DNA of 64,000 nt, taken from the NCBI GenBank assembly GCA_026671195.1, contig JAPOHD010000027.1:682001-746000 (forward strand), read 5' to 3'. The notes under the pieces are model-generated. The model did not search any database. It saw only the letters and a list, made by a program, of their open reading frames with translations, and was not told the origin of the DNA. Positions 11,655 through 64,000 of this stretch are shown here, one piece after another (the stretch's first letter is position 1; each line of letters opens with the position of its first letter). This stretch comes from Draconibacterium aestuarii. GTDB taxonomy: Bacteria; Bacteroidota; Bacteroidia; Bacteroidales; Prolixibacteraceae. The position numbers and the translations under genes are program-made.

Positions 11655-11680
11655 TTGTAACCAATAAATAATCAATTATA

Positions 11681-12577: not shown

Positions 12578-12611
12578 AGGATTTAAGTAATCAAAGTAAA
12601 CTAATCTAATT

Positions 12612-15800: not shown

Positions 15801-15821
15801 ACAACTTCAAATTTTAAAATT

Positions 15822-17564: not shown

Positions 17565-17575
17565 AAATAAATAAG

Positions 17576-17599
17576 GAGCGGCGACTTCGGTCGCTGCTC
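17576..17599 (+). other. UUCG-capped intercistronic hairpin after susD
   Basis: Arms 17576-17585 and 17590-17599 give a 10-bp G/C-rich stem with one G-U pair closed by a C(TTCG)G tetraloop. No T run follows, so it is probably not a full terminator. It may protect the susCD mRNA 3' end or attenuate the genes after it. Confidence 0.65.
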
Positions 17600-17619
17600 T
17601 AACTTATATCCTAACAAAT

Positions 17620-19029: not shown

Positions 19030-19080
19030 GATAATATGCGTGCTTAATTTTTAAAGAAACTGAACCTTAAAAAATTACGG

Positions 19081-21300: not shown

Positions 21301-21368
21301 AAGTACCAGAATTTTGCTCTCAATAGAGTAGTCCTAAATTAATACAGAATAAAATAATAGGTTTAAAA

Positions 21369-22967: not shown

Positions 22968-22991
22968 ACGAAGTTTGGTTAAGTTCAGTTT

Positions 22992-23019
22992 GTCCGGTCC
23001 GTCAGTTGATGGATCGGAC
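22992..23019 (+). terminator. Terminator of the fructan operon
   Basis: A 13-bp stem with G-U pairs and a 2-nt centre (arms 22992-23004 and 23007-23019), followed by TAATTTTT. Its right arm touches the stop codon of the convergent regulator gene. Its core CGTCAGTTGATGGATCGG recurs in the htpG terminator and in the repeat at 57.4 kb. Confidence 0.75.
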
Positions 23020-25802
23020 TAATTTTTAGCAAATTCACTCGGCGAAATTCCAAACTGCTTTTTAAAACACCGGGTAAAATACGATGGTGACGAGAAGCCT
23101 ACCTCATAAGCAATTTCCGAAATGCTTTTACCGCTTGTTTTTATAAGGTTAAGTGACTGTTTTAGCTTTACCGACCGGACAAATTCACTTACCGACATTC
23201 CGGTAAGTTTTTTAATTTTCCGGTAAACATGTACGCGTGAAAGTCCGATTAGCTGGCTGAGTTCTTCCACCGATAGTTCTTCTTTATCGAGGTGTTGTTC
23301 CACAATATTGGAAACCTTGTTCAGAAATTTACGGTCCATCCTCGAAATTTGATCATCATCTACTTCAATAAACAACTGCCCTTTATAACGTTCATGCATT
23401 TTCTTACGGATTTCGAGTAGCTTTTTCACCCTGATTTGCAGGTGTTTACTGTTAAAAGGTTTAGGGATGTACGAATCAGCACCTTCTTCCAATCCTTCAA
23501 ACTTCTGTTCCAGCGAGGCCTTGGCCGTTAACAAAATTACCGGAATATGACAGGTTTTTAAGTCACTTTTAATTGTTCGTGTCAGTTCCAAACCATCCAT
23601 CTCAGGCATCATAATATCGCTGACGATCAAATCAGGTTCTTCTTCTTCGATTATGGATAAAGCTTCTTTTCCATTTTTAGCCTCCAAAATAGTATAATGT
23701 TCTTTTAAACTTTCTTTTACATAAGTTCGTACATCTTTTTCATCTTCAACCAACAGAATCAAAGGTTTTGCAGCATGCCCTAAATTAATTGTTGTTACTT
23801 TTGAAGGCTGATCCTGATCGATATAGATTTCATCGCTTATTGGTTTTTCATGAGTGTCTGGTTTTGAGTCCAATTTTGTTTCAATCTTTTCCTCACTTGT
23901 TAAATGCGTATCTCCAAGTGGTAAATGAATCGTAAAGGTGGTTCCTTTCCTTTCGGTACTTTCCACTTTTATTTTTCCATGATGTAGTTCAATAAACTCT
24001 TTGGAAAGTGATAATCCAAGCCCCGTTCCCTTAAAATCCTGCGATTTTTCAACCTGGTAAAAACGGTCGAAAATACGACTGAGGTGCTTCCCCGAAATCC
24101 CTTTCCCATTATCCCTGACTTCAATCACAACTTCTTCCTGCCAAATGGTTTCAACTACAGGTTTGGTTTTTTTTATTTGAATGCTGATCCTTCCATTTTC
24201 GGGAGTAAATTTGAATGCATTCGATAAAAGATTAAAAATTACCTTATCCAGTTTATCCCAGTCAAACCATACTTGTATTTCAGTTTCAGTAGAAGCAAAA
24301 TCGAGAGTTATTTTCTTATTTTCTGCCAGATTGGTAAACGACAGCTGAATCTCTTTTACAAACGAAACCAAATCATACCGACCAGCATGTAATTTCATTT
24401 TAGCATTTTCGATCTTCCTGAAATCCATCAACTGGTTGATCATTCGGAGCAAACGCAACGAATTGCGGTACATCATGTTAATCTGATTCTGAAATTCAAC
24501 AGGGATTTTTTTTGAATGAATCATGTTTTCCAATGGACCAACAATAAGCGTTAAAGGAGTCCTGAATTCATGTGAAATGTTGGTGAAAAAACGAAGTTTG
24601 GTTTGTGTTGCATTTTTCAGTTTTTCCGATACTTCAATAATCTGGTCGCGCTGTTTTATAATCTCACTGTTACGTTTCTCAATTTCCTTTTTTTGTTGCT
24701 CCAGTTTTATATTGGCTTGTTTTTTATTTCGGAATGCACGAAAAATAATTACAACCAAAATAAAAATAGCTCCCAATAAAAATAAAACTACAATTAGCAG
24801 GGTCCGCTGGTCGTTAAATTTGGAGATTTGGCGGTCGAGAATATCATTCTGTGATTCTATTTTCCCTTGCAGATTCTGAACTTGTTCCGTCTGTAGTTTT
24901 AAAATTTTGGCATTGTTTGAATCAATCACAACCGTTTCGAGAATATTTTCCCGATCAAAAGGGAGTCCGTTTAGTATTTTATGAGCAATCTGAATGGCTT
25001 CTTCACCTCCTGTGCGATAGAGAAACGTTGCATTCAGCTTCCCTTCAATTACTGCTTCCGTTCCTCCATCTTTTCCGTATAGCCCGTCTATTCCCAGAAA
25101 AAATTTATTCGAAACCTGGTTTTTTTTGCATATCTCGTGCGCGGCTATTGCCATTACATCGTTATGGGCAAATACAAGGTCAAAATCAATGTTCTCATCA
25201 ATCATATTTTGCATCACCACTTTACTATCGCTGTAATTCCACTTGCCCGACGGGGAGGTTACAATTTCAATATCCGGATAATTTTGCAGGCTGGTTCTAA
25301 AACCATTCGAGCGATCGATGGCGGGAGACGAGCCGTCCAATCCTCTGATTTCAATTATTGTACCTCTGCCTTCGAGGAGTTTTGCTGCATAACTTCCTGC
25401 TTCTTTTCCAATTAAATAGTTGTCTGATCCAATATACGCGGTGTAGGCATCAGACGAAATATTACGGTCGATTACGATTACGGGAATTCCGGAATTAAAT
25501 ACTTCTTCAACGATTGGAGTTACCGGATCTGATTCGTTTGGGGACACTATTAACAAATCAATTCCTTCGTTCAGAAATTCCTGAATATCACTGATCTGAT
25601 TTCTGTTACTATCGCCTGCATCTTTAATTGTTAACTCCAAATCGGGATGAAAAGCCAGTTCAATTATCATTTCGCGGTGCATGGCTTTACGCCACATATC
25701 GGCACTGGTGCACTGAGAAAAGCCAATTTTATATTTTTCTTTTGAATACGAATATTCCGTTATGATCAGAAAAAGTGCAAGAAAAAATACAAACTTATTC
25801 AT
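23019..25802 (-). CDS. Hybrid two-component sensor/regulator with periplasmic sugar-binding sensor (fructan locus)
   Basis: 927 residues. Order: signal peptide (1-20), periplasmic ribose-binding-protein-like sensor (about 22-310), membrane helix (334-356), coiled coil (360-400), histidine kinase with H411 (NISHEFRTPLTLI), ATPase domain (DNGKGIS, GTGLGLSLS), receiver with D729 (VSDIMMPEMDG), and an AraC-type HTH (845-925). The sensor type is that of the fructose-sensing BT1754 of B. thetaiotaomicron, in place of the usual propeller sensor. It probably binds free monosaccharide and activates the operon through the 21-bp repeats at 10212-10246. It is convergent with the operon it likely controls. 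Confidence 0.96.
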   Translation of the reverse strand: MNKFVFFLALFLIITEYSYSKEKYKIGFSQCTSADMWRKAMHREMIIELAFHPDLELTIKDAGDSNRNQISDIQEFLNEGIDLLIVSPNESDPVTPIVEEVFNSGIPVIVIDRNISSDAYTAYIGSDNYLIGKEAGSYAAKLLEGRGTIIEIRGLDGSSPAIDRSNGFRTSLQNYPDIEIVTSPSGKWNYSDSKVVMQNMIDENIDFDLVFAHNDVMAIAAHEICKKNQVSNKFFLGIDGLYGKDGGTEAVIEGKLNATFLYRTGGEEAIQIAHKILNGLPFDRENILETVVIDSNNAKILKLQTEQVQNLQGKIESQNDILDRQISKFNDQRTLLIVVLFLLGAIFILVVIIFRAFRNKKQANIKLEQQKKEIEKRNSEIIKQRDQIIEVSEKLKNATQTKLRFFTNISHEFRTPLTLIVGPLENMIHSKKIPVEFQNQINMMYRNSLRLLRMINQLMDFRKIENAKMKLHAGRYDLVSFVKEIQLSFTNLAENKKITLDFASTETEIQVWFDWDKLDKVIFNLLSNAFKFTPENGRISIQIKKTKPVVETIWQEEVVIEVRDNGKGISGKHLSRIFDRFYQVEKSQDFKGTGLGLSLSKEFIELHHGKIKVESTERKGTTFTIHLPLGDTHLTSEEKIETKLDSKPDTHEKPISDEIYIDQDQPSKVTTINLGHAAKPLILLVEDEKDVRTYVKESLKEHYTILEAKNGKEALSIIEEEEPDLIVSDIMMPEMDGLELTRTIKSDLKTCHIPVILLTAKASLEQKFEGLEEGADSYIPKPFNSKHLQIRVKKLLEIRKKMHERYKGQLFIEVDDDQISRMDRKFLNKVSNIVEQHLDKEELSVEELSQLIGLSRVHVYRKIKKLTGMSVSEFVRSVKLKQSLNLIKTSGKSISEIAYEVGFSSPSYFTRCFKKQFGISPSEFAKN

Positions 25803-52318: not shown

Positions 52319-52385
52319 TTTGGCCAATTGGGATTACGATTGACTTATTTGGGCTAGTGAGCTGTTCCGCTACAGGCTATATTTA
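52319..52385 (+). promoter_or_regulatory. AraC-type operator and promoter of the first outer-membrane barrel
   Basis: GGG cores at 52330 and 52351 are 21 bp apart; the second is preceded by TTGA starting at 52340 (TTGA-N7-GGG). A -7-like TATATTTA begins at 52378, 27 bp after the second GGG. The geometry equals that of four other promoters in this region. The leader is about 65 nt. Confidence 0.6.
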
Positions 52386-52453
52386 CAGCAATAAAACGTA
52401 CTAAAAACTGAAAACAAATAATAATTCGGAGTAAAACAAAGGGGAAAATTTTA

Positions 52454-53212
52454 ATGAGATTAGTTATATTCATATTCTTGACAATGATCTTGAGCCAGAT
52501 CGCACGGGCGCAGGAAGTTGATTATGATGCAGAACATCAGGAATCTACCTTGCCCAACTTTTCGCGGGTACACTCCAACTTCGAGTTTTACAGTTTTAAT
52601 GGTGGCGAACGAGCCGTGCACTGGGTTACCAATGGTAAATTGGAATTAGGCGACAGGGATTATCTGAATCTTGAAATGATATGGGGGTATTATAATAAAG
52701 AGGGGAAACACGCCTGGACTCCCGGTGATTTTAGTCTTGCCTATTCGCGCAATTACTACTCCTCTAAATTTGGTGATTCGGGCTGGCAGGGCTGGTCGCC
52801 CACTGTAAAATTAATTCTTCCAACAGGAAATCCCGAGTATGCGGCCATTTTTGGTCACTGGATTTTGGAACCTTCTTTTCAGTACACGTGGTTATTAAAC
52901 GATGACCGTTTTTTCATCCGGAACAGATGGCGTGTAAACTTCCCCCTGGCCAATACAAACGACTGGCCCGAACCGCCAATCTTTTTACGTTTTGAGCCGC
53001 AGATCGGATTTGAGAACAGCAAATTTTGGGCCTCAGCCACCATGGACAACCGTATGGTGTTTAATATGGATGCCTATGTAATTTTTGGCCGATTGGATGC
53101 CGGTTACAAGATCAGTAAGAAAAGCGGAATAAACGTTTTTTATACTGAACGTTTGCGCGAAAAAGTATTATTTAAGAAATATGCCGGCGTGAGTTTTTAT
53201 TACAACTTTTAA
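52454..53212 (+). CDS. Outer-membrane beta-barrel protein (transporter-like)
   Basis: 252 residues with a signal peptide ending ARAQ. Amphipathic beta-strands with many aromatics run to the C-terminal VSFYYNF, whose terminal Phe is typical of outer-membrane barrels. Stretches such as WSPTVKLILPTGNPEY and NRWRVNFPLANTNDW resemble the broad MetA-like transporter barrels. Substrate unknown. It shares its operator design with the barrel gene downstream and with three secreted hydrolases. Confidence 0.7.
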   Translation: MRLVIFIFLTMILSQIARAQEVDYDAEHQESTLPNFSRVHSNFEFYSFNGGERAVHWVTNGKLELGDRDYLNLEMIWGYYNKEGKHAWTPGDFSLAYSRNYYSSKFGDSGWQGWSPTVKLILPTGNPEYAAIFGHWILEPSFQYTWLLNDDRFFIRNRWRVNFPLANTNDWPEPPIFLRFEPQIGFENSKFWASATMDNRMVFNMDAYVIFGRLDAGYKISKKSGINVFYTERLREKVLFKKYAGVSFYYNF

Positions 53213-53282
53213 ATTGTAGTCGGATAAATAAAAGCGACAGCTAATGCATATTCAGGGTTTGACAACAGAATACAGCTTCTAT

Positions 53283-53339
53283 CGGGATATCGGTTGACAC
53301 AATTGGGATGATATATTCAGCGTAGCTGCACTACATTTT
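53283..53339 (+). promoter_or_regulatory. AraC-type operator and promoter D1
   Basis: CGGGAT at 53283 and TGGGAT at 53304, 21 bp apart. TTGA at 53294 lies 11 bp before the second GGG (53305). A -7-like TACATTTT begins at 53332, 27 bp after that GGG. It would give a long leader of about 255 nt to the gene at 53598. Confidence 0.55.
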
Positions 53340-53458
53340 AATTTATACGCTTTGGGAGGTACTTGCCAATCACATAAAAAGCTGGTTATCCGAAATCTGC
53401 TGTTTGATCTCTCAAATGGAGATAACTGGTTGTGAGTATTGCCTGGGATTCACATAGA

Positions 53459-53525
53459 TTGACCAAATTGGATTTGTTACTGACCTGAAATGGGGCATAC
53501 ATGATGCCTTGTTGGTTGATATTTG
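53459..53525 (+). promoter_or_regulatory. AraC-type operator and promoter D2 (weaker)
   Basis: TTGACC at 53459 and CTGACC at 53480 are 21 bp apart, each followed by a GG-rich core (GGAT, GGGG; the second core is shifted by 1 bp). A -7-like GATATTTG begins at 53518. Leader about 68 nt, similar to the upstream barrel gene, so this may be the main promoter. Confidence 0.4.
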
Positions 53526-53597
53526 CGCTTGTATAAAGTAATGTACCAAAGGGAAAGTGTTCAGAAACAGAATTTTAAAAAACAAATAAAGAATAGC

Positions 53598-54419
53598 ATG
53601 AAACAAGTTAAAGTAATTTTAGTAGCTGCTCTGGCTGTATTTGGCCTCAATTCGGTGAGCGCGCAAGACGAGAGTTCGGGAACTGCGCTCAGCGAGCAGG
53701 AAGAGATTGCACAAAAACTGCAAAATCCGCTGGCAAGCATTATTGCCTTGCCCATACAGCATAACATTGGTACCGGAGTTCCGGGCTACGAAGGATCGAC
53801 GTACACCATGTTGTTGCAACCCATTATTGCAACCGATTTTAACAAGTTTAGCATTGTACACCGCGGTGTATTTGGTGCTTCTTACCTGCCTGCGTCAGAA
53901 GCAGGCGACGGAAGTGTTTTTGGAATGACCGATTTGAACTATTCGTTCTTTTTAGCGCCCAAAACAGGAAAAAAACTTGCCTGGGGAGTGGGGCCGTCTG
54001 TTGATTTGCCAACAGCAACCGACCAACGGTTAGGTAGTGGAAAATGGAGTGCCGGTGCCGGTTTTGTAATGGTGTATCAGCAAAACAAATGGACTTTCGA
54101 TATGGTATTTCGTCAAACCATGTCGTTTGCCGGAGACAGTGAACGCGCCGATGTGAGCCGTTTTGTGGGGCAAACCCTTGTGGCTTATGGCCTGGGTAAC
54201 GGATGGATTGTAAATACCTTTCCAACCATTACAGCCAACTGGAATGCCGAAAGTGGCCAGAAATGGACCATTCCTGTTGGGGGTGGCATAAGTAAACTGG
54301 TTTTCCTGGGTAAGATGCCTGTCTCTTTTGGCGCACAGTATTACAACAATGTGGTTCGTCCGGATTATGCGGGTAAAAGCGAATTCCGGTTTTCTACCAC
54401 ATTTGTGTTTGCAAAATAG
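53598..54419 (+). CDS. Outer-membrane barrel protein, neuromedin-U-like transporter type
   Basis: 273 residues from the ATG at 53598 (MKQVKVILVAALAVFGLNSVSAQ, signal peptide); the frame is open further upstream but without a second signal. A short helical part (SEQEEIAQKLQNPLASIIALP) is followed by strands such as QHNIGTG, GMTDLNYSFFLAP, WGVGPSVDLPTATDQRLGSG and a C-terminal FRFSTTFVFAK. This pattern is common in proteins loosely annotated as neuromedin U or transporter in Bacteroidota. Function unknown. It probably belongs to the same regulon as the barrel gene before it. Confidence 0.7.
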   Translation: MKQVKVILVAALAVFGLNSVSAQDESSGTALSEQEEIAQKLQNPLASIIALPIQHNIGTGVPGYEGSTYTMLLQPIIATDFNKFSIVHRGVFGASYLPASEAGDGSVFGMTDLNYSFFLAPKTGKKLAWGVGPSVDLPTATDQRLGSGKWSAGAGFVMVYQQNKWTFDMVFRQTMSFAGDSERADVSRFVGQTLVAYGLGNGWIVNTFPTITANWNAESGQKWTIPVGGGISKLVFLGKMPVSFGAQYYNNVVRPDYAGKSEFRFSTTFVFAK

Positions 54420-54427
54420 GCAAAACA

Positions 54428-54471
54428 AAAACCTCTCTGTACCGATCGCCCTGTGCGGACAGAGAGGTTTT
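54428..54471. terminator. Bidirectional terminator
   Basis: A perfect 13-bp stem (arms 54428-54440 and 54459-54471) bounded by A and T runs. It serves the barrel gene on the plus strand and the gene at 54497 on the minus strand. Confidence 0.85.
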
Positions 54472-54496
54472 TTATGTGATTTATTGTGAAATGTAA

Positions 54497-55144
54497 TTAC
54501 GAAGGGCTAATAATTCCCAGCATTTCAAGGTATTGAGGCTGGTCGGCAAGAGCCAGCCGGGCAATTTCAATATAGTCGGAATACCATTCCTGCAACGCAT
54601 CAACGGCTTCGTCGCGGGCTATGGTAGCGTCTTGTGCTTCACCCATTTCCTTTTTACGCATGGCCAGCTTTTCTTCGGCTATGATTACCAGTCCCAATCC
54701 GGTTTCAAGTTTTTCCTGTGTTTGTCCGTATCCGGCCATTTTTTCGAGCGCTTCTTCATCGGCCAACAGGTTCGCATAAAATACTTTGGTTTGCCCCAGC
54801 CAGTCCGAATGGCTGTCTTTTCGGCTCCCGTTCAGTTCCAGCTGAATATAGCGGTTGGTATCTTTGCGGAAAGCCACACGGGCAATCTTTAAAAAAGGGA
54901 TATACACGCGGTTGGCCTCTTCAATACTTTGGTTGAGGGCTTCTGTGGCCGCTTGTTGTTCCCCGTCTTCTTTTTTCTGCCGGTTGGTAAGCAACCCGGC
55001 TGTGGTGCGTAGGTCTTGTCCCTCTGCCAGACGTTCGGGTGTATAACCGAACTCTTGCAGTAAGGAAGCTATGGCCGCCTGGTTTATACCATTGTTTATG
55101 GCCACGCCTGATTTTGTTAGTAATTCATCGATTTTTTTACTCAT
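54497..55144 (-). CDS. Conserved-looking helical protein of unknown function
   Basis: 215 residues, almost all helical and charged, without a signal peptide. It begins MSKKIDELLTKSGVAINNGI, and has EALNQSIEEANRVYIPFLKIARVAFRKD, DWLGQTKVFYANLLADEEAL and EWYSDYIEIARLALADQPQYLEMLGI. Two similar segments (YIPFLKIARVAF near residue 80 and YIEIARLAL near 190) suggest an internal duplication of a helical bundle. I cannot name the family. It starts beside a long non-coding 21-bp repeat block. Confidence 0.7.
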   Translation of the reverse strand: MSKKIDELLTKSGVAINNGINQAAIASLLQEFGYTPERLAEGQDLRTTAGLLTNRQKKEDGEQQAATEALNQSIEEANRVYIPFLKIARVAFRKDTNRYIQLELNGSRKDSHSDWLGQTKVFYANLLADEEALEKMAGYGQTQEKLETGLGLVIIAEEKLAMRKKEMGEAQDATIARDEAVDALQEWYSDYIEIARLALADQPQYLEMLGIISPS

Positions 55145-55304
55145 CGTTAATCGTGTTAAGTTAAAGGGCGAATTGTTTTTTTTGAAAGTTATTTTTTACT
55201 TGTAATTATCTGCTATTGTGTTCTTGGGCTTTGCCTGCGCTGGTTAAGCGGCCTCTGTCGCTTCATTTCTTCTGCCCGAATTTTGTTCCCCCCCGCCATT
55301 GTTT

Positions 55305-55659
55305 CACGCACCTTCCGGTGCAAAAGCCTGCCGGTCGTTTACTTTTCGTTGCCTGTTACTGATTTTTTATCCCCGGTTATTAAATCTTCATTCGCGGTCA
55401 TATACTTTTAACTCTCCTCCACAAAACTTTGATTACCGGTTGCTTACTTTTGATTGCCGGTCAACTATTTCTGATTCACCGTCACAAATTTTTGATTGCC
55501 GGTCGCATACTTTTGATTCTCCGATGCCGGTGAATAAAAAGGGAGGGGTGGTTGGTTATTATTTTATGCCGGTATGCCAAAAATTTGAGGAGGTGAGCCA
55601 AAAAGTAGTGGGTTGTTGTTACATGCCGGTGGGCGTTGGTTAAAAAACGGGAGGTGTCT
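55305..55659. repeat. Mirrored array of 21-bp units (at least 10 forward, 6 reverse)
   Basis: Forward units (GATTGCCGGTC-N3-TACTTTT-like) are in register at 55326, 55347, 55368, 55389, 55410, 55431, 55452, 55473, 55494 and 55515, with a weaker one at 55305. The GATT core is exact at 55431-55515. Reverse units (GCCAAAAA-like) are in register at 55534, 55555, 55576, 55597, 55618 and 55639. All steps are exactly 21 bp. An open frame crosses it only because 21 is a multiple of 3. Flanks from 55145 and to 55785 hold no gene. Confidence 0.8.
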
Positions 55660-55785
55660 GTGAATTCTCATAATTAATGTGTTTAAAATTAAGGAAAGGC
55701 AAACAAATGTTTATAAAAACGTATTGAATATAATACGGTTAGAGATAAAAAACAAATAATATGTTTAAAAAGTTATTCTCCTGTA

Positions 55786-55866
55786 GCAAGTCTTCCTGCT
55801 TGTGCGCGAAACAATAGTTGGTAGTCTTAGTCTGTTTAATCCCTGGATTATTGTATAATCATCCGA
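55786..55866 (+). repeat. Direct repeat copy 1 flanking the TPR gene
   Basis: It begins GCAAGTCTTCCTGCTTGTGCG, shares AAACAATAGTTGG and ATTATTGTATAATC, and ends near CCGA. A second copy in the same orientation is at 57219-57300. The start holds a small inverted pair (GCAAG and CTTGTGC). Between here and the next gene (to 56164) is only non-coding DNA with fragments of common interspersed sequence. Confidence 0.65.
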
Positions 55867-56164
55867 TTGAATTGAACACAAATTTTTAAATAGACCAGGA
55901 GTTGAACTACATACACGAATTTTTAGCGCAGATTAAATTTCTCCTCTAACAATAAAAAAGTCCATATAACTTTCCCCTTTTTAAAGGGGAAATGGCTGTA
56001 GCGAACGAATGTGTGGCGGCTGTTGATAAAGGGCCGCAAAAGAGGTGGAATTCTCCTGGCACATGGTCTTTCGCTGCAGTATAACCCTGCTAATTTTATT
56101 TGGCATGTTAATGTAGGCATCGGAAAATGTGAATAACGTTAGGTTCCTTACTTGCAGCTAATTC

Positions 56165-56932
56165 TTACTCGGTAATATTTAGGAATTCTTCGTCAGTCCA
56201 CAAACCTTTGAAATCCTCATCTTTCCGTGCATGCTGTTTTAATCGAGGCATCTTTTCAACTGCTGTTTTCAAATCGGTAAGGGCGTTGGTTTTGTCTCCC
56301 ATTAAACAGTAAATACAGGCCCGATTGTAAATATTTGACGGGAAATCAGGAGCCAGGTCTATCCCCTTGTTAATCGCAATTATTGCTTCATCGAAATGTT
56401 TTAATTTAGCCAGTACGGCTGCTTTCATTCCCCAAAGGTCAAAACGGCTTGCATCGAGTGTTGTAGCTTTATCAAACGCTTTAAATGCTCCCTCATATTT
56501 TTGCATCGCACTTAAAGCCTGACCTTTCAAAATATAGTTCAGAGATGAGTCAGGTTGTAGTTCAATTAGTTGATTAATACATTCGATCCCTTCTTCATTT
56601 TTACCATGTTCGATTAAAATAAAGCTTTTAAAGAATATTATCCCTGTATTTTTCGGATAAAAAACGAGCAATGAGTCCAGTTGTTTTATTGCATACAATT
56701 CCCCCTCAGGCGTTCTTTTCATATTAGCCATCAACCAGAACTGTACTGCTTGTCTATTGTCTGGCTGGCTTTCCATAATTTTTGTCAAAATGGCGGAGGC
56801 TTCTTCTTTTTGTCCCTTCATTATCAGATCACGGGCTTTACCAACTTCGCCAGTTAAAGTTTCTTGTCCGAGTGTCGTCAGGCTGAATGTCACTGCCAGG
56901 ATAAGACTGATTAGAACGAATGATAATTTCAT
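56165..56932 (-). CDS. Secreted TPR protein
   Basis: 255 residues with a signal peptide (FSLTTLGQ). Tetratricopeptide repeats fill about residues 28-235; examples are ARDLIMKGQKEEASAILTKI, NYILKGQALSAMQKYEGAFK and AVLAKLKHFDEAIIAINKGI. The end reads ARKDEDFKGLWTDEEFLNI, a form seen at the end of TPR proteins that contain a last, partial repeat. Probably a periplasmic scaffold; partner unknown. It sits between two direct repeats and away from other genes, so it may have arrived or been duplicated as a unit. Confidence 0.85.
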   Translation of the reverse strand: MKLSFVLISLILAVTFSLTTLGQETLTGEVGKARDLIMKGQKEEASAILTKIMESQPDNRQAVQFWLMANMKRTPEGELYAIKQLDSLLVFYPKNTGIIFFKSFILIEHGKNEEGIECINQLIELQPDSSLNYILKGQALSAMQKYEGAFKAFDKATTLDASRFDLWGMKAAVLAKLKHFDEAIIAINKGIDLAPDFPSNIYNRACIYCLMGDKTNALTDLKTAVEKMPRLKQHARKDEDFKGLWTDEEFLNITE

Positions 56933-57218
56933 TTTAGCATAATTAGGTTAATGGAAAAAAAACTAAAATAGGGCATACAGTGATTTTATTATAGGTGCTG
57001 TAAATCAATTGCAAAACAATTTTGGATAAAGATGTTACGATTGACTTTTTTTCTGAAAGTATTTCAATATGCATCTTGTTTTCAATAATAATTTTTAATG
57101 GATATCCTTTGGCTATGAAATGAGATTTCATCTTATGTAATTTTTAGATGCCTGTCGTATTACACACAAATGAATATACACGCCTTATAATAAAAGGTTA
57201 CAAAAGTACTTCCCTGGC

Positions 57219-57300
57219 GCAAGTCTTCCTGCTTGTGCGCTAAACAATAGTTGGCACACTCGATCTGTTTTATTCCCTGTATTATTGTATAATCCCCCGA
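57219..57300 (+). repeat. Direct repeat copy 2 flanking the TPR gene
   Basis: Same orientation as the copy at 55786-55866, with roughly 75-80 percent identity by eye over 82 bp. The 56933-57218 stretch before it is AT-rich with no gene. Confidence 0.65.
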
Positions 57301-57418
57301 TGTAAGCGAACTAGGGGATGAAGCTCAGAGGAAGTCTGATTTTTCCAATACCCAATACTCAATACAGAATATACAACCAATTTACATTGAGTATTGTATA
57401 TTTTACATTGGGTATTTT

Positions 57419-57640
57419 AGTGGTGTCCATTAAATTCTGAACAGATTCCTCTCCGTCAGTCGACGGATCGGAATGACAACGGTTTAAGGACGTTGAATTG
57501 CGGTGGGGATATTTTGGCGGCTTTGCCGCCAAAATATCCCCACCGCATTAGCTTAATAACCTAAGCTGTTGTCATTCTGAGCGTAATGCAATGGAGCGAA
57601 AGAATCTCTTTCAAAATCCAGATTTTAGTGGACAGTAGTG
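57419..57640. mobile_element. MITE-like interspersed repeat, long form with central hairpin
   Basis: Left end TGGTGTCCATTAAATTCTG and right end (reverse complement) CTACTGTCCACTAAAATCTG form imperfect terminal inverted repeats. Inside are ACAGATTCC, a CCGTCAGTCGACGGATCGG segment and GAATGACAAC on the left, and GTTGTCATTCTGAGCGTAAT and AGAATCTC on the right. The modules match those at 34674-34799 in reverse. The centre holds a 23-bp hairpin absent from that copy. It is non-coding. Confidence 0.6.
57499..57547. repeat. Perfect 23-bp inverted repeat with 3-nt loop
   Basis: Arms 57499-57521 and 57525-57547 are exactly complementary with TTT between them. The arm begins TGCGGTGGGGATATTTTGG. It sits in the middle of the repeat at 57419-57640. 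Confidence 0.95.
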
Positions 57641-57696
57641 TGGTTATTTGTTTCGTGGATGTATATTGCACCCTGCTGCCGCGTGGTTTCACAGGC

Positions 57697-58683
57697 TTAC
57701 AACGGAATCACCTCTTTCGGATTAATGCCTTTTACTTTTTTAAACATCAGCGAAAATTTAGATACATTCTGATAGCCCAAATCATAGCCAACCTCGGTAA
57801 CCGAATACTTTCCCGATCGTAATCGCCGTAATGCCTCATCCATTTTGGCATGGGTGTGGAACTTTGAAACCGAAGAATCAAATACGGTGTTAAAATCGCG
57901 TTTTAGTTTAGATGTACTAATCCCATATTCCACGGCAATTTCATCCATGCTGATTTTTTCCTCTACTTTCGACAGTAAATAGTTTTTAATCTTCATTATG
58001 CGTTTGTAGTCATCAATATGCAAACCGTGTAAATCTTCTTTCTGCAACTGCTTATTCAACGAACTTAGCAGAAGTGTAAAAAGCTCCAGCCCCTTGCTCA
58101 TAATTAATGCTCTACTGCCAAAATCAGCTTTTTCTAAAAAAAAAATATCCTCAGCCATACGTTCCAGCTCCGAACTAACATGAGTATGATACCAGATGGG
58201 TTTATTATCGGGGAAAAGAGATTGAAGCAGGTTGTCGGCTTCAGGTATTATCTGACAAACAGCTTCTTTCGAGAATTTAACCGAGACAGATCGTATTTCG
58301 ATACGAGCCGGGTGAACCGTGTTTAATGGGAACAGGCCATTATGGAAAAACAAACCCATGGAACTTCCGGCTTCAGCCTGCAGTTGTTCGTTGGGGTTTT
58401 GCCGGGTGATTTGTCCTTCGTTAATCAGGGTTAAATGATAAAAATCTGAACGATCATCGGGTAAGCGGGTAGCATATATTTTCTTTTGTAAGAATTGCTG
58501 AAATAAAATGATTTCAAATTCAGGCAGTAGTTTTACAATAGATACATTCATTCGGTTACCACCCGTATGTACTTCATAACTACTATTGGTTCGGGTGCCC
58601 CCAAATAGTTTTTCCAACGCATCCAGGTAATTTTCTACACCGCCCTCTTTAATATGAAATGAATAGTTCTCTTCGTTTTGCAT
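57697..58683 (-). CDS. AraC-family transcriptional regulator 1
   Basis: 328 residues. An N-terminal sensor-like domain (about 1-220) begins YSFHIKEGGVENYLDALEKLFGG. The C-terminal HTH pair contains KISMDEIAVEYGISTSKLKRDF and YSVTEVGYDLGYQNVSKFSLMFKKVKGINPKEV. It is a paralogue of the regulator at 60392: same length, same ends and similarity throughout. It is divergent from the M20 hydrolase and probably binds the 21-bp repeats between them. The signal it senses is unknown. Confidence 0.92.
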   Translation of the reverse strand: MQNEENYSFHIKEGGVENYLDALEKLFGGTRTNSSYEVHTGGNRMNVSIVKLLPEFEIILFQQFLQKKIYATRLPDDRSDFYHLTLINEGQITRQNPNEQLQAEAGSSMGLFFHNGLFPLNTVHPARIEIRSVSVKFSKEAVCQIIPEADNLLQSLFPDNKPIWYHTHVSSELERMAEDIFFLEKADFGSRALIMSKGLELFTLLLSSLNKQLQKEDLHGLHIDDYKRIMKIKNYLLSKVEEKISMDEIAVEYGISTSKLKRDFNTVFDSSVSKFHTHAKMDEALRRLRSGKYSVTEVGYDLGYQNVSKFSLMFKKVKGINPKEVIPL

Positions 58684-58750
58684 TTGTTCATGTTATCAGA
58701 CCCTTAAAATAAGAGAAACCATTTAAGTATACAATTTTATCAGCCGGATC

Positions 58751-58817
58751 TTGAACTCAAAGGGCGTTTTGTTGATCTGCAAGGGCGGAATAATAAGCTC
58801 CTTTTCCTCCAAATTTG
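58751..58817 (+). promoter_or_regulatory. AraC-type operator and promoter of the M20 hydrolase
   Basis: TTGAACTCAAAGGGCG (58751-58766) and TTGATCTGCAAGGGCG (58772-58787) are direct repeats exactly 21 bp apart. CAAATTTG at 58810 is a near-consensus -7, 27 bp after the second GGG. The best example of the half-site in the window. Confidence 0.75.
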
Positions 58818-58893
58818 CAGCATAAATAAAAACAACCTGTTGAAAAATAGACAGATTATAAAATATTAAAAAAAACATTTTAAATAAGAAATT

Positions 58894-60255
58894 ATGAAAA
58901 CAATAATTAAACGAAATTGGACAATCAGTTTGATGAGTATGCTAATGGTTTTTATGGCCTTTACTCTTAAGGCGCAGGAAAGTACCCTTCCTCAATCGGT
59001 TATCGATAAAATGGAAAAGGTTGTTGATAAAAAAGAAGGATATATCCTTGATATATTTAAGGATATTCATGCTAACCCGGAATTAGCTTTTAATGAGGTT
59101 CGCACTGCCGGAATAGTAGCAAAGGAGCTTGAAAAGTTAGGATTTGAAGTGCAAACAGGTATTGGTGGAACCGGTGTGGTTGGTGTGCTTCGAAATGGCG
59201 AGGGACCAACTTTTATGTATCGCGGCGATATGGATGCAGTGATAGTAGAAGAAAATACCGGCTTACCTTATGCCAGTACCAAGCGTGTAAAGAATGAAGA
59301 AGGTGAGGAGATACCTGTAGCTCATTTGTGTGGACACGATGCCAATACCACATGGGTAATTTCATTGGGACATACCATGGCCCAAATGAAAGAGCATTGG
59401 TCGGGTACCCTGGTATTAGTGGGGCAGCCTGCCGAAGAGACGGTATCAGGTGCACAAGCTATGATGGATGATGGTTTATACACGAAATACAATGTGCCTC
59501 AACCTGATTATTTCCTGGCGCAGCACACATCACCATTTCCTACAGGAACAGTAATATCTACCGATGGTCGTTATACTACCGGAACAACTCATATGGATAT
59601 TGTTTTTCACGGTGTTGGCGGACATGGTTCATCACCCCACCATGCTATCGACCCGGTGGTAATGGCAGGTATGGCGATTGTACAACTGCAAACAGTAGTT
59701 TCGCGAATTGCCGACCCTGAAGAGGTGGCTGTTTTAACCATTGGTAGCGTACAAGCCGGAACAGTACACAATGTAATTCCAACAGAGGCACATTTAAAAC
59801 TGAAACTGCACTTTTCTAACGATGAAGTAATGCAGAAGATGATTAAAAGTATTCATGATATTGCCAATGGTATTGCTTTATCCAACGGACTATCAGGTGA
59901 TATGATGCCAACCATTACTCAAAGTGGTTTCGGTCCTGCCATTCATAACGATAAAGAATTTATGGAAACCATCCGCAAGGCTACCGATCGGGTTGATTTT
60001 ACTACTAACCGCATTGATAACCTTACCCTTCCTGCATCAGAAGACGCTTTTGCTTTGATTCACGGATTGGAAGATGTAAAAGGTGCTTACATGTTTATAG
60101 GAACAACAGACCCTGTAGTACTTGCAAAGGCACGTGCCGAAGGGAAAGAATTTGCTTTTATGCCACATGATCCGGGTTACCAGGTAGACTTAAACGGAAT
60201 TACTTTTGGTTCAAAACTGGCTGCTTTAATTGCCTTGGAAATAATGCAGAAGTAA
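58894..60255 (+). CDS. Secreted M20D-family amidohydrolase/peptidase
   Basis: 453 residues with a signal peptide (AFTLKAQ). M20D features: DIHANPELAFNEVRTAGIVAKEL, YRGDMDAV, LCGHDANTTWV, GQPAEETVSGAQ, AQHTSPFPTGTV, HGVGGHGSSPHHAIDPV, and a C-terminal FMPHDPGYQVDLNGI. Family members split N-acyl or amide-linked amino acids such as hippurate, or cap aminoacyl conjugates. The usual CGHDxH motif has Asn in place of the last His; the Cys and first His metal ligands are kept. It is likely periplasmic. The substrate is unknown. Confidence 0.9.
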   Translation: MKTIIKRNWTISLMSMLMVFMAFTLKAQESTLPQSVIDKMEKVVDKKEGYILDIFKDIHANPELAFNEVRTAGIVAKELEKLGFEVQTGIGGTGVVGVLRNGEGPTFMYRGDMDAVIVEENTGLPYASTKRVKNEEGEEIPVAHLCGHDANTTWVISLGHTMAQMKEHWSGTLVLVGQPAEETVSGAQAMMDDGLYTKYNVPQPDYFLAQHTSPFPTGTVISTDGRYTTGTTHMDIVFHGVGGHGSSPHHAIDPVVMAGMAIVQLQTVVSRIADPEEVAVLTIGSVQAGTVHNVIPTEAHLKLKLHFSNDEVMQKMIKSIHDIANGIALSNGLSGDMMPTITQSGFGPAIHNDKEFMETIRKATDRVDFTTNRIDNLTLPASEDAFALIHGLEDVKGAYMFIGTTDPVVLAKARAEGKEFAFMPHDPGYQVDLNGITFGSKLAALIALEIMQK

Positions 60256-60280
60256 TCTGATTCAAAAAAATATAAGTAAA

Positions 60281-60303
60281 AGCTCGTGCCTGTGGTACGG
60301 GCT
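60281..60303 (+). terminator. Terminator of the M20 hydrolase gene
   Basis: A 10-bp stem with two G-U pairs (arms 60281-60290 and 60294-60303), 3-nt loop, followed by TTTTTTT. Confidence 0.85.
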
Positions 60304-60391
60304 TTTTTTATGAAAGTATTTTCTCTTATACCCATCCTCTTGTCTTTCTCCCGTTGCGCAAGTCTTCCGACTCCGTGCTGCCGACTTCCCG

Positions 60392-61378
60392 CTACAAGGG
60401 TATCACCTCTTTCGGATTAATACCTTTTACTTTTTTAAACATCTGCGAAAATTTCGACAGGTTTTGATAACCCAGATCATAGCCAACTTCCATTACCGAA
60501 TAGTTGCCGGTGCGCAGCCGACGATAGGCTTCATCCATTTTTGCATGGGTATAAAATTTATAAATGGTTGTATTGAATAAGGTTTTAAAGTCGCGTTTTA
60601 ACTTCGAGTCGCTAATGCCAAACTGGCTTGCAATATCTTCAATGTTTACCTTCCGCTCTAAATTCGAAAGCAAAAAGCCTTTTATTTTTAACAAACGATT
60701 ATAGTCGTCAAGATGCAATCCGTTCAGTTCATCCTGGTCAAGCTGGCTTTTTAATGTTTTCATTAAAACCGGCAAAATATCCAGTCCGCGTGCCATTGCC
60801 AGGGGAATACGTCCGTAATCCGCATTTTCGTAATAAAATAACTCATCAAGCATTTTGTCCAGTTCACTGTTTATGGCAGTATGGTAGGCTTTGGGTTCTT
60901 CATCTCCAAAAAGAGAATCCAACAAACCTATGGCTTCAGGCATTAGTTCACCCAGCGCTTTTTTTGAGAATTTATAGCCGATGGATTGGGTATCGCTACG
61001 TTGGGGAAAAGCCGATGTAAAAGGGAAAAGTCCGTTGTAAAGAAATATCCCGTTTGAGCTGCCGGCCTGGGTATATTTTAAACTATCCTGGTAGTTTTGT
61101 TTTATCTGTCCCTGGTTAATCAGGTTAAAATGATAAAAATCGGCGCGTTCATCCGGTTCGCGTTCCACAATTATTTCCTGGTGGTAGTTTATCTGAGCAA
61201 CAATTAGGTCGAATTCATCCAGATAGGTATAGCTGGATACGCATATCCGGCTTAATCCTTGTTCGATTAACACACGGTTACCATTCATGGTTCCTCCCAG
61301 CTTCTGCACCAAAGCCTCCATGTAGTTATCTGCTCCGCCTTCCTTAAGCTTAATAATATGTGAAGAATCATTTGTCAT
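60392..61378 (-). CDS. AraC-family transcriptional regulator 2
   Basis: 328 residues, a paralogue of the regulator at 57697. It begins SHIIKLKEGGADNYMEALVQKLGG. The HTH region has VNIEDIASQFGISDSKLKRDF and YSVMEVGYDLGYQNLSKFSQMFKKVKGINPKEV. The recognition helices are close to those of its paralogue, so the two may share sites. It is divergent from the serine hydrolase, whose operator is a variant of the common half-site. Confidence 0.92.
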   Translation of the reverse strand: MTNDSSHIIKLKEGGADNYMEALVQKLGGTMNGNRVLIEQGLSRICVSSYTYLDEFDLIVAQINYHQEIIVEREPDERADFYHFNLINQGQIKQNYQDSLKYTQAGSSNGIFLYNGLFPFTSAFPQRSDTQSIGYKFSKKALGELMPEAIGLLDSLFGDEEPKAYHTAINSELDKMLDELFYYENADYGRIPLAMARGLDILPVLMKTLKSQLDQDELNGLHLDDYNRLLKIKGFLLSNLERKVNIEDIASQFGISDSKLKRDFKTLFNTTIYKFYTHAKMDEAYRRLRTGNYSVMEVGYDLGYQNLSKFSQMFKKVKGINPKEVIPL

Positions 61379-61433
61379 AGTGGACTTAAAATTACAAGAA
61401 AGTTACAACATCGCAATACTGCTTAATACACGT

Positions 61434-61500
61434 TTGTAACTTTTGGAGCAGAACCAGCAACTTTTGGAGCGAAACAAAGGAGAAAGAAGCTATAGTTTTG
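61434..61500 (+). promoter_or_regulatory. AraC-type operator and promoter of the serine hydrolase
   Basis: AACTTTTGGAGC is repeated at 61438 and 61459, exactly 21 bp apart; the first copy is preceded by TTGT. TAGTTTTG at 61493 is an exact -7, 27 bp after the second GG. Leader about 20 nt. Confidence 0.75.
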
Positions 61501-61524
61501 CTTATAAATTTAAAAGTTACAAAT

Positions 61525-62844
61525 ATGAAAACAGTAAAAATACTTTTGATCGCCATGATGGGATTTTCCTTTGGGATAGGGCAGGCGTCAGGCCAAACTG
61601 ATAATACAAAAACAAAACCGATACCACCTTCACCGGTATCCGTTTTTAAAAAAGATGTGTCTGCTGAAAAAGCATTGGAATACCGAAGAGACTATCGTGG
61701 TAGAGATTTCCTGATCAACGGAGATAGAGGGACATACAGTTTTATTAATGTACCTGAAATGTACCAGACAGCTACCGTTTATCGCAGTGGCGGACAGGTA
61801 GCAATGCTGGAGAAAAATATTGATGCATCACTATTGGGCACCATGACCGATACCGACGCCGGTAAAATGCCTTTAAAAGATTTATTAACCGACGAAACTG
61901 CCCGTATGCAAGGTCTGTTGGTGATTCATGATGGTAAAATTGTATTGGAAGAGTACCCGGGAATGCGCGAACTGGATAAACACAGCTGGTTTTCGGCTTC
62001 GAAACAAATATTAGGACTTACAGTGCATATCCTGGAGGAAGAGGGATTGATTGACCTGGAGCAAACAGTAAATTATTACTTGCCTGATTATAATAATGAT
62101 GACTGGAAGAAGGTGAAAGTTAAGCACCTGTTGCACCATGTATCGGGAATGGACTATGTGGAAACCAATGCCAATTTTATGAATCCCGAACATGCCTTGG
62201 CAAGAGTTACTTCATATGCCCTTGCGTCGCGTCACGAAGATGGAGGACAGTCGGCATATGATATATTAAAAGAGGTGAGAAGTTATATTGAACCGGGTGT
62301 AAAGTACGATTATGCTTCGCCAAATACCCAAATTCTTGGTTTTATTGTAGAGCGTGTTACCGGTAAAAAATATGAGGAAGCTGTTGCCGAAAGAATATGG
62401 ACACAAGTTGGAATGGAAAGTGATGGTCACTATGCATTATCAGCCCAGGGAGAACCAATTTCGGCCGGATATTTTACCTCTCGTTTGCGCGACATGGGCC
62501 GTTTTGGCATGCTGTATACGCCAAGCTGGAACAAGGTGACTGATAAGCAAATTATAAGCGACACCTATTTCGATAAGGTATATGATACCACTTATGCCGA
62601 TGCCCTTAAACGCGGTGTGGAAACCGATAAGTCGAAATATTTTAAAGATGGCCAGTCGCATGCTACTTACCAATGGGATATTGTTTTCTCGGATGGCGAC
62701 ATGTACAAAGCCGGTCGTTACGGACAGGGTATTTATGTATCACCTGAGACCAATACGGTGGTCGTATTTTTCTCAAGTGTATACCTGAATCAGCTTTATG
62801 TTCCCGGTTTTGCCCGCCAGTTGGTACAGCAAAATTATCGATAA
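61525..62844 (+). CDS. Secreted serine hydrolase, beta-lactamase/class C-like fold
   Basis: 439 residues from the ATG at 61525, with signal peptide (ending near QASGQ). A TTG in frame nine codons earlier is part of the -7 region and unlikely as a start. Features: MQGLLVIHDGKIVLEEYPG, the SxxK site in SWFSASKQILG (S157, K160), LLHHVSGMDY, YDYASPNTQILGFIVERVTG with the Tyr of the second motif, and GQGIYVSPETNTVVVFFSS near the end. This family includes esterases, D-aminopeptidases and oligomer hydrolases besides beta-lactamases. Role unknown; probably periplasmic. Confidence 0.9.
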   Translation: MKTVKILLIAMMGFSFGIGQASGQTDNTKTKPIPPSPVSVFKKDVSAEKALEYRRDYRGRDFLINGDRGTYSFINVPEMYQTATVYRSGGQVAMLEKNIDASLLGTMTDTDAGKMPLKDLLTDETARMQGLLVIHDGKIVLEEYPGMRELDKHSWFSASKQILGLTVHILEEEGLIDLEQTVNYYLPDYNNDDWKKVKVKHLLHHVSGMDYVETNANFMNPEHALARVTSYALASRHEDGGQSAYDILKEVRSYIEPGVKYDYASPNTQILGFIVERVTGKKYEEAVAERIWTQVGMESDGHYALSAQGEPISAGYFTSRLRDMGRFGMLYTPSWNKVTDKQIISDTYFDKVYDTTYADALKRGVETDKSKYFKDGQSHATYQWDIVFSDGDMYKAGRYGQGIYVSPETNTVVVFFSSVYLNQLYVPGFARQLVQQNYR

Positions 62845-62868
62845 GTAATAGAAGAATAGAATAGTAGG

Positions 62869-62895
62869 AGCCTGCTTTGTTTTTCAAGGCAGGCT
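62869..62895 (+). terminator. Terminator of the serine hydrolase gene
   Basis: A stem of about 11 bp (arms 62869-62879 and 62885-62895) with a T-rich loop, followed by TTCTTTT. Confidence 0.8.
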
Positions 62896-62900
62896 TTCTT

Positions 62901-62967
62901 TTGAGCGAATCGGGACTTGGATTGACTTTATCGGGATAAAGTATCAGTTGTTCAGTCTATACTTTTG
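62901..62967 (+). promoter_or_regulatory. AraC-type operator and promoter of the alpha/beta hydrolase
   Basis: TTGAGCGAATCGGGA (62901-62915) and TTGACTTTATCGGGA (62922-62936) are direct repeats 21 bp apart. TACTTTTG at 62960 is an exact -7, 27 bp after the second GGG. Confidence 0.75.
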
Positions 62968-63034: not shown

Positions 63035-64000
63035 ATGAAAAAAGGATTTTATAGCTTATTAATGATGGCCCTTGTTGTTCTTGGCGCAAATGCGCAACAA
63101 TCATTTTACAATCCGGTAGTACCCGAGATTGTTCAGTATAAAGTAACTGAAGGTGTTAAATACGGAGAAGGAAAGGTGAAAGTAGATAATAAAATTGCCA
63201 CAAAAGATTTAACAATGGATGTGTACTATCCAGTTGCCGAAGCAGAAGGTCCTCGTCCTGCTGTACTTCTATCTTATGGAGGTAGTTTCCATCGCGGAAA
63301 TCCACGCGTTCCTTACAACGGTTTTGGCGGACAAACCACTACCATGAGCCAGTATGCCATGGCTTATGCAGCGGAAGGATTTACTGTATTTACCATTGAT
63401 TATCGTGTAGCTCCTGATAATCCTGTAGTCGACACACCCGAAGGTTATTCCGATGAAGACTTAGATACCGGGATTTATTCCGCTCCGGCTACCATTGCTC
63501 AAACAAATATGATTCGTGCACAAATGGGATTGGAGCCTCTGGCTGTTGAGAATGCAGAAGTAGTATTAAGGGCAACATTGCGTGGAGCTTGTGAAGATCT
63601 GCGTACCGCTATTCGTCATATTAAAAAAGAAGCAACAACTTATCATATCGATCCGGATAAAATTGCCATTGGTGGTTTTTCTGCAGGTGGTGTAATGAGT
63701 ATTAATGTGGCCTTCGGAATGAAAGAAGAAGTAGCTGCTGTATTTACCAACTCAGGATTTCCTGTTGCTTTTAAAATGGATAAGTTGGTTACAGAGAGTG
63801 AAAAGAATCCGCCAATTATGATGTTTATGGCAGATAACGATTTACCTGTTGTTACCCTGGCAACTTCGCCATTCTTACAAATTTTGGATAAAAACAATGT
63901 AGAGTATCATTTTAACTGGGTGCCCGGTTTCGGTCATTTCTATCCGGGAGGAGCAGTAAGCTTATCCGATAAAGGCGATAAAATGCCTGTGATTGTGCGT
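63035..64000 (+). CDS. Secreted alpha/beta hydrolase (esterase-like), runs off the window
   Basis: The ATG at 63035 begins a frame open to the window end (322 residues seen). Signal peptide MKKGFYSLLMMALVVLGANAQ. The alpha/beta hydrolase pattern is present: SYGGSFHRG (oxyanion loop), YAAEGFTVFTIDYRVAP, the nucleophile in GGFSAGG (S216), MFMADND with a likely acid, and FGHFYPGG with the likely His. It is like carboxylesterases that act on acetylated or feruloylated compounds. Substrate unknown. It completes a set of three secreted hydrolases sharing one promoter design. Confidence 0.9.
   Translation, partial: MKKGFYSLLMMALVVLGANAQQSFYNPVVPEIVQYKVTEGVKYGEGKVKVDNKIATKDLTMDVYYPVAEAEGPRPAVLLSYGGSFHRGNPRVPYNGFGGQTTTMSQYAMAYAAEGFTVFTIDYRVAPDNPVVDTPEGYSDEDLDTGIYSAPATIAQTNMIRAQMGLEPLAVENAEVVLRATLRGACEDLRTAIRHIKKEATTYHIDPDKIAIGGFSAGGVMSINVAFGMKEEVAAVFTNSGFPVAFKMDKLVTESEKNPPIMMFMADNDLPVVTLATSPFLQILDKNNVEYHFNWVPGFGHFYPGGAVSLSDKGDKMPVIVR

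What the first reader, a model, noticed from the sequence alone, without database searches (positions are those of the whole stretch)
52319..62967. A shared 21-bp tandem operator links two barrels and three secreted hydrolases into one putative regulon
Seen directly: at 58751, 62901, 53283, 52319 and (as a variant) 61434 there are two direct half-sites of form TTGA-N7-GGG, exactly 21 bp apart. The first G of the second core lies exactly 27 bp before the first base of a TAnnTTTG-like -7 (58783/58810, 62933/62960, 53305/53332, 52351/52378, 61466/61493). Two helical turns plus a fixed distance to the promoter is what a tandem-binding AraC activator needs, and two AraC paralogues are encoded between these genes. 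The set (two outer-membrane barrels, an M20 amidohydrolase, a class C-like serine hydrolase, an esterase) looks like an uptake and cleavage system for an unknown amide- or ester-linked substrate.
Basis: partly seen in the sequence, partly recalled or inferred. Interest (0 to 1): 0.85.

Follow-up and report, generated by a model that had tools for sequence, protein, structure and literature searches.

The report
AraC-controlled hydrolase regulon with tandem operators
A set of bacterial genes for secreted enzymes and outer-membrane proteins shares the same paired DNA control site, which is conserved in related bacteria and, among the genomes compared, found almost only where one subfamily of AraC regulator is present, so this looks like a real, undescribed gene network of a familiar type.

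Summary
All five sites are present, with half-sites 21 bp apart and 27 bp from the second GGG to the -7 element. Three are strong; 61434 is a variant and 53273-53339 is weak.

In relatives' AraC loci not used to define the motif, the 21/27 geometry ranks first of 744; in two further genomes, first of 667. A model trained only on relatives finds 12 own-genome sites at E<0.002, intergenic by inspection. Of 61 genomes, all 7 with a close AraC homologue carry the site, against 3 of 54 without. Relatives have it before all five of the window's gene types, and before small lipoproteins, other hydrolases, a stress protein and a flavin oxidoreductase.

Best reading: cupin-type AraC activators bind two 17-bp direct half-sites beside the -7 box, within 1 bp of the E. 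coli araI2 position. Substrate and inducer are unknown. Published Bacteroides AraC-type regulators also use 21-bp direct repeats, so this is a new member of a known kind.

The parts
52319..52385 (+). tandem operator plus -7 element (52378-52385) before barrel 1
   Evidence: E 3.2e-4 genome-wide with a model trained on relatives only; 12/14 + 5/6 matches
   Evidence: ORF; no Pfam hit; relative L101:3432-4148 also has a site
   Evidence: first half lacks TTGA; E 0.19; score 12.1
53459..53525 (+). better operator and -7 element before barrel 2, not in the finding
   Evidence: E 6.1e-4; score 31.4
   Evidence: ORF; no Pfam hit; relatives with sites L092:12264 and L098:13767
57697..58683 (-). AraC1, cupin plus double-HTH regulator
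   Evidence: Pfam HTH_18 E 8e-16; AlphaFold2 model and fold matches
58751..58817 (+). operator and -7 element before the M20 gene
   Evidence: 20/20 pattern matches; E 0.34 in the calibrated scan; matrix score 23.5, Markov null maximum 16.1
58894..60255 (+). M20 amidohydrolase with signal-like N-terminus, 453 aa
   Evidence: TIGR01891 E 1.5e-68 above cut-off; sites before relatives in G007, G008, G013 and Carboxylicivirga sediminis
60392..61378 (-). AraC2, 50% identical to AraC1
   Evidence: Pfam HTH_18 E 6e-17; alignments
61434..61500 (+). variant operator and -7 element before the serine hydrolase
   Evidence: 13 of 17 repeat identity at 21 bp; matrix score 16.1; not in the calibrated scan at E up to 10
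61525..62844 (+). class C beta-lactamase-like serine hydrolase (PF00144), 439 aa
   Evidence: Pfam E 1.2e-32; 17 related genes with sites in 10 genomes, own included
62901..62967 (+). operator and -7 element before the esterase
   Evidence: E 1.5e-5 genome-wide; 20/20 matches
63035..64000 (+). alpha/beta hydrolase (esterase-like) with signal-like N-terminus, runs past the window end
   Evidence: BD-FAE and Abhydrolase_3; relatives with sites

Best explanation
The repeated element is the operator-promoter of a regulon activated by a subfamily of single-component AraC regulators: AraC1 and AraC2 in the window and a third paralogue on contig C4. Each target has two direct half-sites, about wTGAnCnnnwkGGrnTA (17 bp), 21 bp apart on one face of the DNA. 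The downstream half ends just before the spacer of a Bacteroidota -7 box (YAnnTTTG). Two AraC subunits would sit side by side and, when the cupin domain senses its ligand, contact RNA polymerase in place of a good -33 element. Shown here: the motif, its fixed geometry, its conservation, its genomic targets, its association with this AraC subfamily, and (by model) the regulator's domain build. Inferred: that these AraC proteins bind it, that they activate rather than repress, and that the paralogues share sites because their recognition helices are nearly identical. Products look mostly exported by their N-termini (by eye): hydrolases, barrels and small lipoproteins. The most likely role is a response to, or use of, an unidentified amide- or ester-containing compound.
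Against: No binding, start-site or expression data. In the window alone the plain pattern is weak at a loose threshold. 61434 and 53273 are poor matches. G005 has one strong site (E 6.3e-9) but no AraC at E up to 1e-40; G001 and G029 have one weak site each. G020 has the AraC but only one site at E up to 0.01. 7 of 19 relatives' regions score under 15/20 upstream of AraC.
Confidence: 0.83

Rival explanations
1. The element is bound by a different kind of regulator (for example a LytTR-type or response-regulator protein, which also bind direct repeats near this period), and the AraC genes are merely neighbours or targets.
For: Direct repeats of about two helical turns are not unique to AraC proteins (recalled). 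G005 has a strong site but no close AraC homologue. Sites also lie on contigs without a close AraC gene (C7, C9, C62).
Against: Site and AraC co-occur in 7 of 7 genomes. In 12 of 19 relatives' regions a site lies just upstream of AraC, reading away from it. The half-site shape (4 bp, 7-bp gap, GG-rich box, 21-bp period) is that of AraC-type operators (shape recalled; 21-bp period in Bacteroides).
Confidence: 0.08
2. The sites are ordinary sigma-A or alternative sigma promoters with no dedicated activator; the tandem TTGA/GGG boxes are extended promoter elements.
For: Every site has a -7 box, though this is by construction of the search.
Against: Two boxes repeat each other at 21 bp, and absence of this AraC goes with absence of the sites in 51 of 54 related genomes.
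Confidence: 0.03
3. The geometry is real for part of the set, but the 61434 and 53273 sites are chance or decayed; the serine hydrolase is not in the regulon.
For: 61434 is absent from the calibrated scan at E up to 10 and 53280 has E 0.19; one of twenty window shuffles reached 16.1, the score of 61434.
Against: Serine hydrolases are the commonest target group: 17 genes in 10 genomes. In Tamlana a serine hydrolase lies divergent from an AraC2-like gene (likeness by eye) with a 17/20 site between them (L100:9952). 61434 has 13 of 17 repeat identity.
Confidence: 0.25
4. The regulon is a stress or detoxification response rather than nutrient uptake and cleavage.
For: A universal stress protein gene carries a site in own C4:92353 (E 0.08) and in G007, and flavin oxidoreductase genes in four genomes; a candidate site precedes a TetR/RND efflux cluster (L063:4866, score 22.8).
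Against: Secreted-looking hydrolases are the largest class of annotated targets; the efflux site formed a group of its own.
Confidence: 0.35

Closest known systems
Bacteroides AraC-type operators: RhaR and the hybrid two-component systems (HTCS)
   Same: Published direct repeats with 21-bp periodicity or average distance, in the same phylum (passages of PMC3870299; passages of PMC3878776).
   Different: Those control sugar and polysaccharide genes. HTCS proteins are membrane sensor kinases; these are 328-aa cupin plus HTH proteins. Their motifs were not aligned with this one, so sequence difference is not tested.
E. coli AraC with araI1-araI2 at pBAD
   Same: Cupin plus double-HTH regulator, proximal half at about the same distance from the start site (the 17-bp TAGC-N7-TCCATA shape and the 21-bp period are recalled).
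   Different: Different letters, Bacteroidota -7 box instead of -35/-10, many targets, no sugar pathway among them; no looping site was sought.
ToxT and Rns (AraC family, fatty-acid controlled)
   Same: Best full-length Foldseek matches (ToxT E 4e-11).
   Different: 14% identity, whole-chain TM 0.3-0.4 with rmsd near 16 A, probably because the domains are oriented differently; shared fatty-acid control is not shown. Rns sites are mostly about 40 bp apart (PMC8329261 passage).

Membership tests
AraC/XylS family regulator | C-terminal DNA-binding domain with two helix-turn-helix motifs | tested here: met
AraC/XylS family regulator | N-terminal cupin-like sensor and dimerisation domain (AraC subtype) | tested here: met
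AraC-type tandem operator | Two direct half-sites with about 21-bp period | tested here: met
AraC-type tandem operator | Proximal half-site adjoins or overlaps the -35 region | tested here: met
   Fixed 27-bp distance to -7; -50 to -34 if the flavobacterial -7 position holds; start sites not mapped
AraC-type tandem operator | Binding and ligand-dependent activation by the regulator | not testable with these tools
   Needs protein and RNA work
Hybrid two-component system (HTCS) | Periplasmic sensor plus histidine kinase plus receiver in one protein | tested here: not met
   328-aa proteins with only AraC HTH families in Pfam and a cupin-HTH model
LytTR-type regulon | LytTR regulator encoded with the sites | not tested
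   Considered only; no LytTR search was made

The most novel reading that the evidence does not exclude
A modular non-sugar regulon of Bacteroidota. A family of cupin-AraC paralogues sharing one operator switches on secreted hydrolases, barrels, tiny lipoproteins of unknown role and two non-coding transcripts. It may be triggered by an acylated amide or ester signal and so act as a sense-and-destroy (signal- or toxin-quenching) programme.
Probability: 0.15. Interest if true: 0.65.

Novelty: new member of a known kind. Interest (0 to 1): 0.47.

Why it matters
Transcription control in Bacteroidota is best known for sugar loci (as in the two regulon papers). This gives a checked operator matrix with a fixed promoter distance for a non-sugar AraC subfamily, a list of candidate co-regulated exported proteins of unknown role (including 52-66-aa lipoproteins), and a direct route to the inducer through reporter screens.

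Tried and rejected
Loose pattern matching alone: TTGNC-N5-TGGG pairs with up to 3 mismatches gave 42 hits against 40 for the reversed control, so such patterns cannot define the regulon; a trained model was used instead.

Chance clustering within the window: rejected.

sRNA conservation: two sites, C7:43577 and C20:757464, drive stretches without a convincing ORF that end in terminator-like hairpins and fold better than shuffles (z -2.8 with 0 of 200 shuffles, z -3.2 with 1 of 100 shuffles as stable). Neither is found as a whole in the 36 other genomes of the genus (one partial match of about 45 bases in G019), and no Rfam family reaches its gathering score. Left as an aside.

Fourth AraC-like protein at C20:754944 (23-28% identity): set aside as a different subfamily.

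In print: nine searches showed 21-bp repeats for other Bacteroides regulators and, in the listings seen, nothing on this regulon; one search matched 2,501 papers and 3,345, of which only the best 10 and 15 were listed. Only open-licence PMC papers are held. Only passages were seen of PMC3870299, PMC3878776, PMC9723704, PMC4760080 and PMC8329261, and passages with a figure legend of PMC11434276.

Limits of counts: the model was trained on 29 of the 48 hits listed (at most eight listed per locus), picked by hand; of the 19 left out some were duplicates (L107, L111) or weak, but some scored 16-17. One search used 19 of 22 AraC loci (L107 and L111 repeat L091 and L095; L110's sites are near-identical to L095's). 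One search used stricter filters. In one search a gene was assigned to each site by a simple rule (long or signal-like ORF starting within 400 bases), and several sites in named relatives were training sites.

Full report
Check of the observation. A sixth pair at 53459-53525 (16 of 20) is a better candidate for barrel 2. In the window the 21/27 geometry is the only first-ranked one of 667 at thresholds 16-18, but rank 6 at 15.

Test on relatives. AraC1 has two close paralogues in its genome, AraC2 (51%) and C4:157749 (54%). By matching coordinates, Maribellus sediminis (L091) is G020 and the Draconibacterium MAG (L095) is G036, both listed as the window's genus. In G007 and G013, used neither for the motif nor for the model, 21/27 gave 18 hits against a mean of 0.2 and ranked first of 667.

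Refined motif. 29 relatives' sites align without gaps. Half-site: wTGAnCnnnwkGGrnTA, a 17-bp unit with a 4-bp box, a 7-bp gap and a GG-rich box. If TAnnTTTG lies at -12 to -5 as in Flavobacterium psychrophilum (PMC9723704, passage), the halves cover -71 to -55 and -50 to -34. In E. coli the proximal AraC site is -51 to -35 (PMC11434276, legend).

Own-genome regulon. The relatives-only model gives 12 sites with E<0.002: three in the window (barrel 1, barrel 2, esterase), three before tandem 55-66-aa lipoproteins (C62), one divergent from the third AraC and one before its paralogue (C4:157512, C9), one before a short broken-looking gene (C4:155246), one before a 123-aa protein (C68), and two before stretches without a convincing ORF (C7, C20:757464). 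By inspection all twelve lie between genes; at C68 a 120-aa ORF overlaps on the other strand. The M20 site has E 0.34 and the universal stress protein site 0.08; both have a counterpart site in G007. The matrix scores of the M20 site (23.5) and the 61434 site (16.1) compare with a Markov-null maximum of 16.1 in 19.64 million positions, and with one shuffle-derived 16.1 in twenty window shuffles.

Co-occurrence. Of 61 genomes, 7 have a close AraC homologue and all 7 have a site at E up to 0.01 (12, 5, 11, 6, 9, 1 and 4 sites). Of 54 without, 3 have one site each, one of them strong (G005). Fisher 2.8e-7, uncorrected for kinship. The training set included sites of G003, G008, G036 and G020 (as L110, L112, L095 and L091), but none of G007, G013 or the window's own genome.

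Targets. In the window and 33 loci the matrix found 86 sites at score 16 or more after dropping repeats of the same gene, 82 with a gene behind them. Of the four without, two are the own C7 and C20 stretches, one is cut by a locus end (L173, seen whole in L174) and one is L105. Groups, with genes and genomes: PF00144-type serine hydrolases (17, 10), small lipoproteins (13, 7; one of them 114 aa), a 642-666-aa protein whose C4 copy has no Pfam match (7, 6), M20 (5, 5), a short protein beginning MKRSxQNIF (4, 4), flavin oxidoreductase (4, 4), Omp85-like (4, 4), barrel 2 (3, 3), esterase (3, 3), amidohydrolase-3 (3, 3), a lumazine-binding-like protein (3, 2), barrel 1 (2, 2), universal stress protein (2, 2), a 67-aa membrane-like protein (2, 2), a TPR-like protein (2, 2), choloylglycine-hydrolase type (2, 2), a sulfatase-containing group (2, 2) and four single genes (Pfam was run on one to four members of a group). 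These loci were fetched by AraC or by site, so the counts are not an unbiased census.

Regulator. The 15-sequence alignment keeps the recognition regions almost unchanged (L100 and L106 could not be included), which would explain one operator for several paralogues and genera. The AlphaFold2 model of AraC1 (pLDDT 84.5, pTM 0.62) is a cupin-like half plus an AraC double-HTH half.

What is new. Direct repeats of 21 bp are published for Bacteroides RhaR (PMC3870299, passages) and, as an average, for 16 HTCS regulators (PMC3878776, passages). The kind is known. The subfamily, its operator letters, its promoter distance and its non-sugar regulon did not show in the listings of the searches named.

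What stays open. Which paralogue acts where, the inducer, the substrate, and whether activation is direct. The hydrolase theme is real but not exclusive, so the uptake-and-cleavage reading remains a hypothesis.

Noticed in passing
L061:9580-9850 (own C7:43579-43849) and L063:14465-14830 (own C20:757464-757829): Tandem operators precede 200-300-nt stretches without a convincing ORF that end in terminator-like hairpins and fold better than shuffles: candidate AraC-controlled small RNAs, not found as a whole in the 36 other genomes of the genus examined.
   Followed up: partly
L062:9411-10700 (own C62:89410-90699); also L095, L170, L171, L174, L176, L178: 52-66-aa lipoproteins (MKxxKxLAxAF...SCSDD...) with their own operators, three in tandem in the own genome and others in several genomes; role unknown (one gave a sub-threshold match to DUF6520, E 0.19).
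   Followed up: partly
L063:4866-4932 (own C20:747865-747931): Candidate tandem site with GTA in place of GGG in both halves, score 22.8, before a TetR-like gene and a TolC/MFP/RND-like efflux cluster (by eye) just right of the window.
   Followed up: no
L100:10001-10993: The Tamlana AraC2-like gene has an in-frame stop in this assembly although a site stands before the neighbouring serine hydrolase; only described.
   Followed up: no
L060:6760-7220 (own C4:154759-155219, minus strand): The gene behind the C4:155246 site is split into a 37-aa and a 107-aa frame, while the Maribellus relative has one 154-aa frame.
   Followed up: no
window 57500-57546: A perfect palindrome of two 22-base arms around TTT, between the TPR gene and AraC1 (by eye).
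   Followed up: no
window 55787-55868 and 57220-57302: A dispersed imperfect repeat of about 80 bp (caagtcttcctgcttgtgcg...) on either side of the TPR gene (by eye).
   Followed up: no
window 10311-25802: A fructan-type utilisation locus by appearance: MFS transporter, fructokinase-like, SusC/SusD pair, GH32-like enzymes and a hybrid two-component regulator.
   Followed up: no
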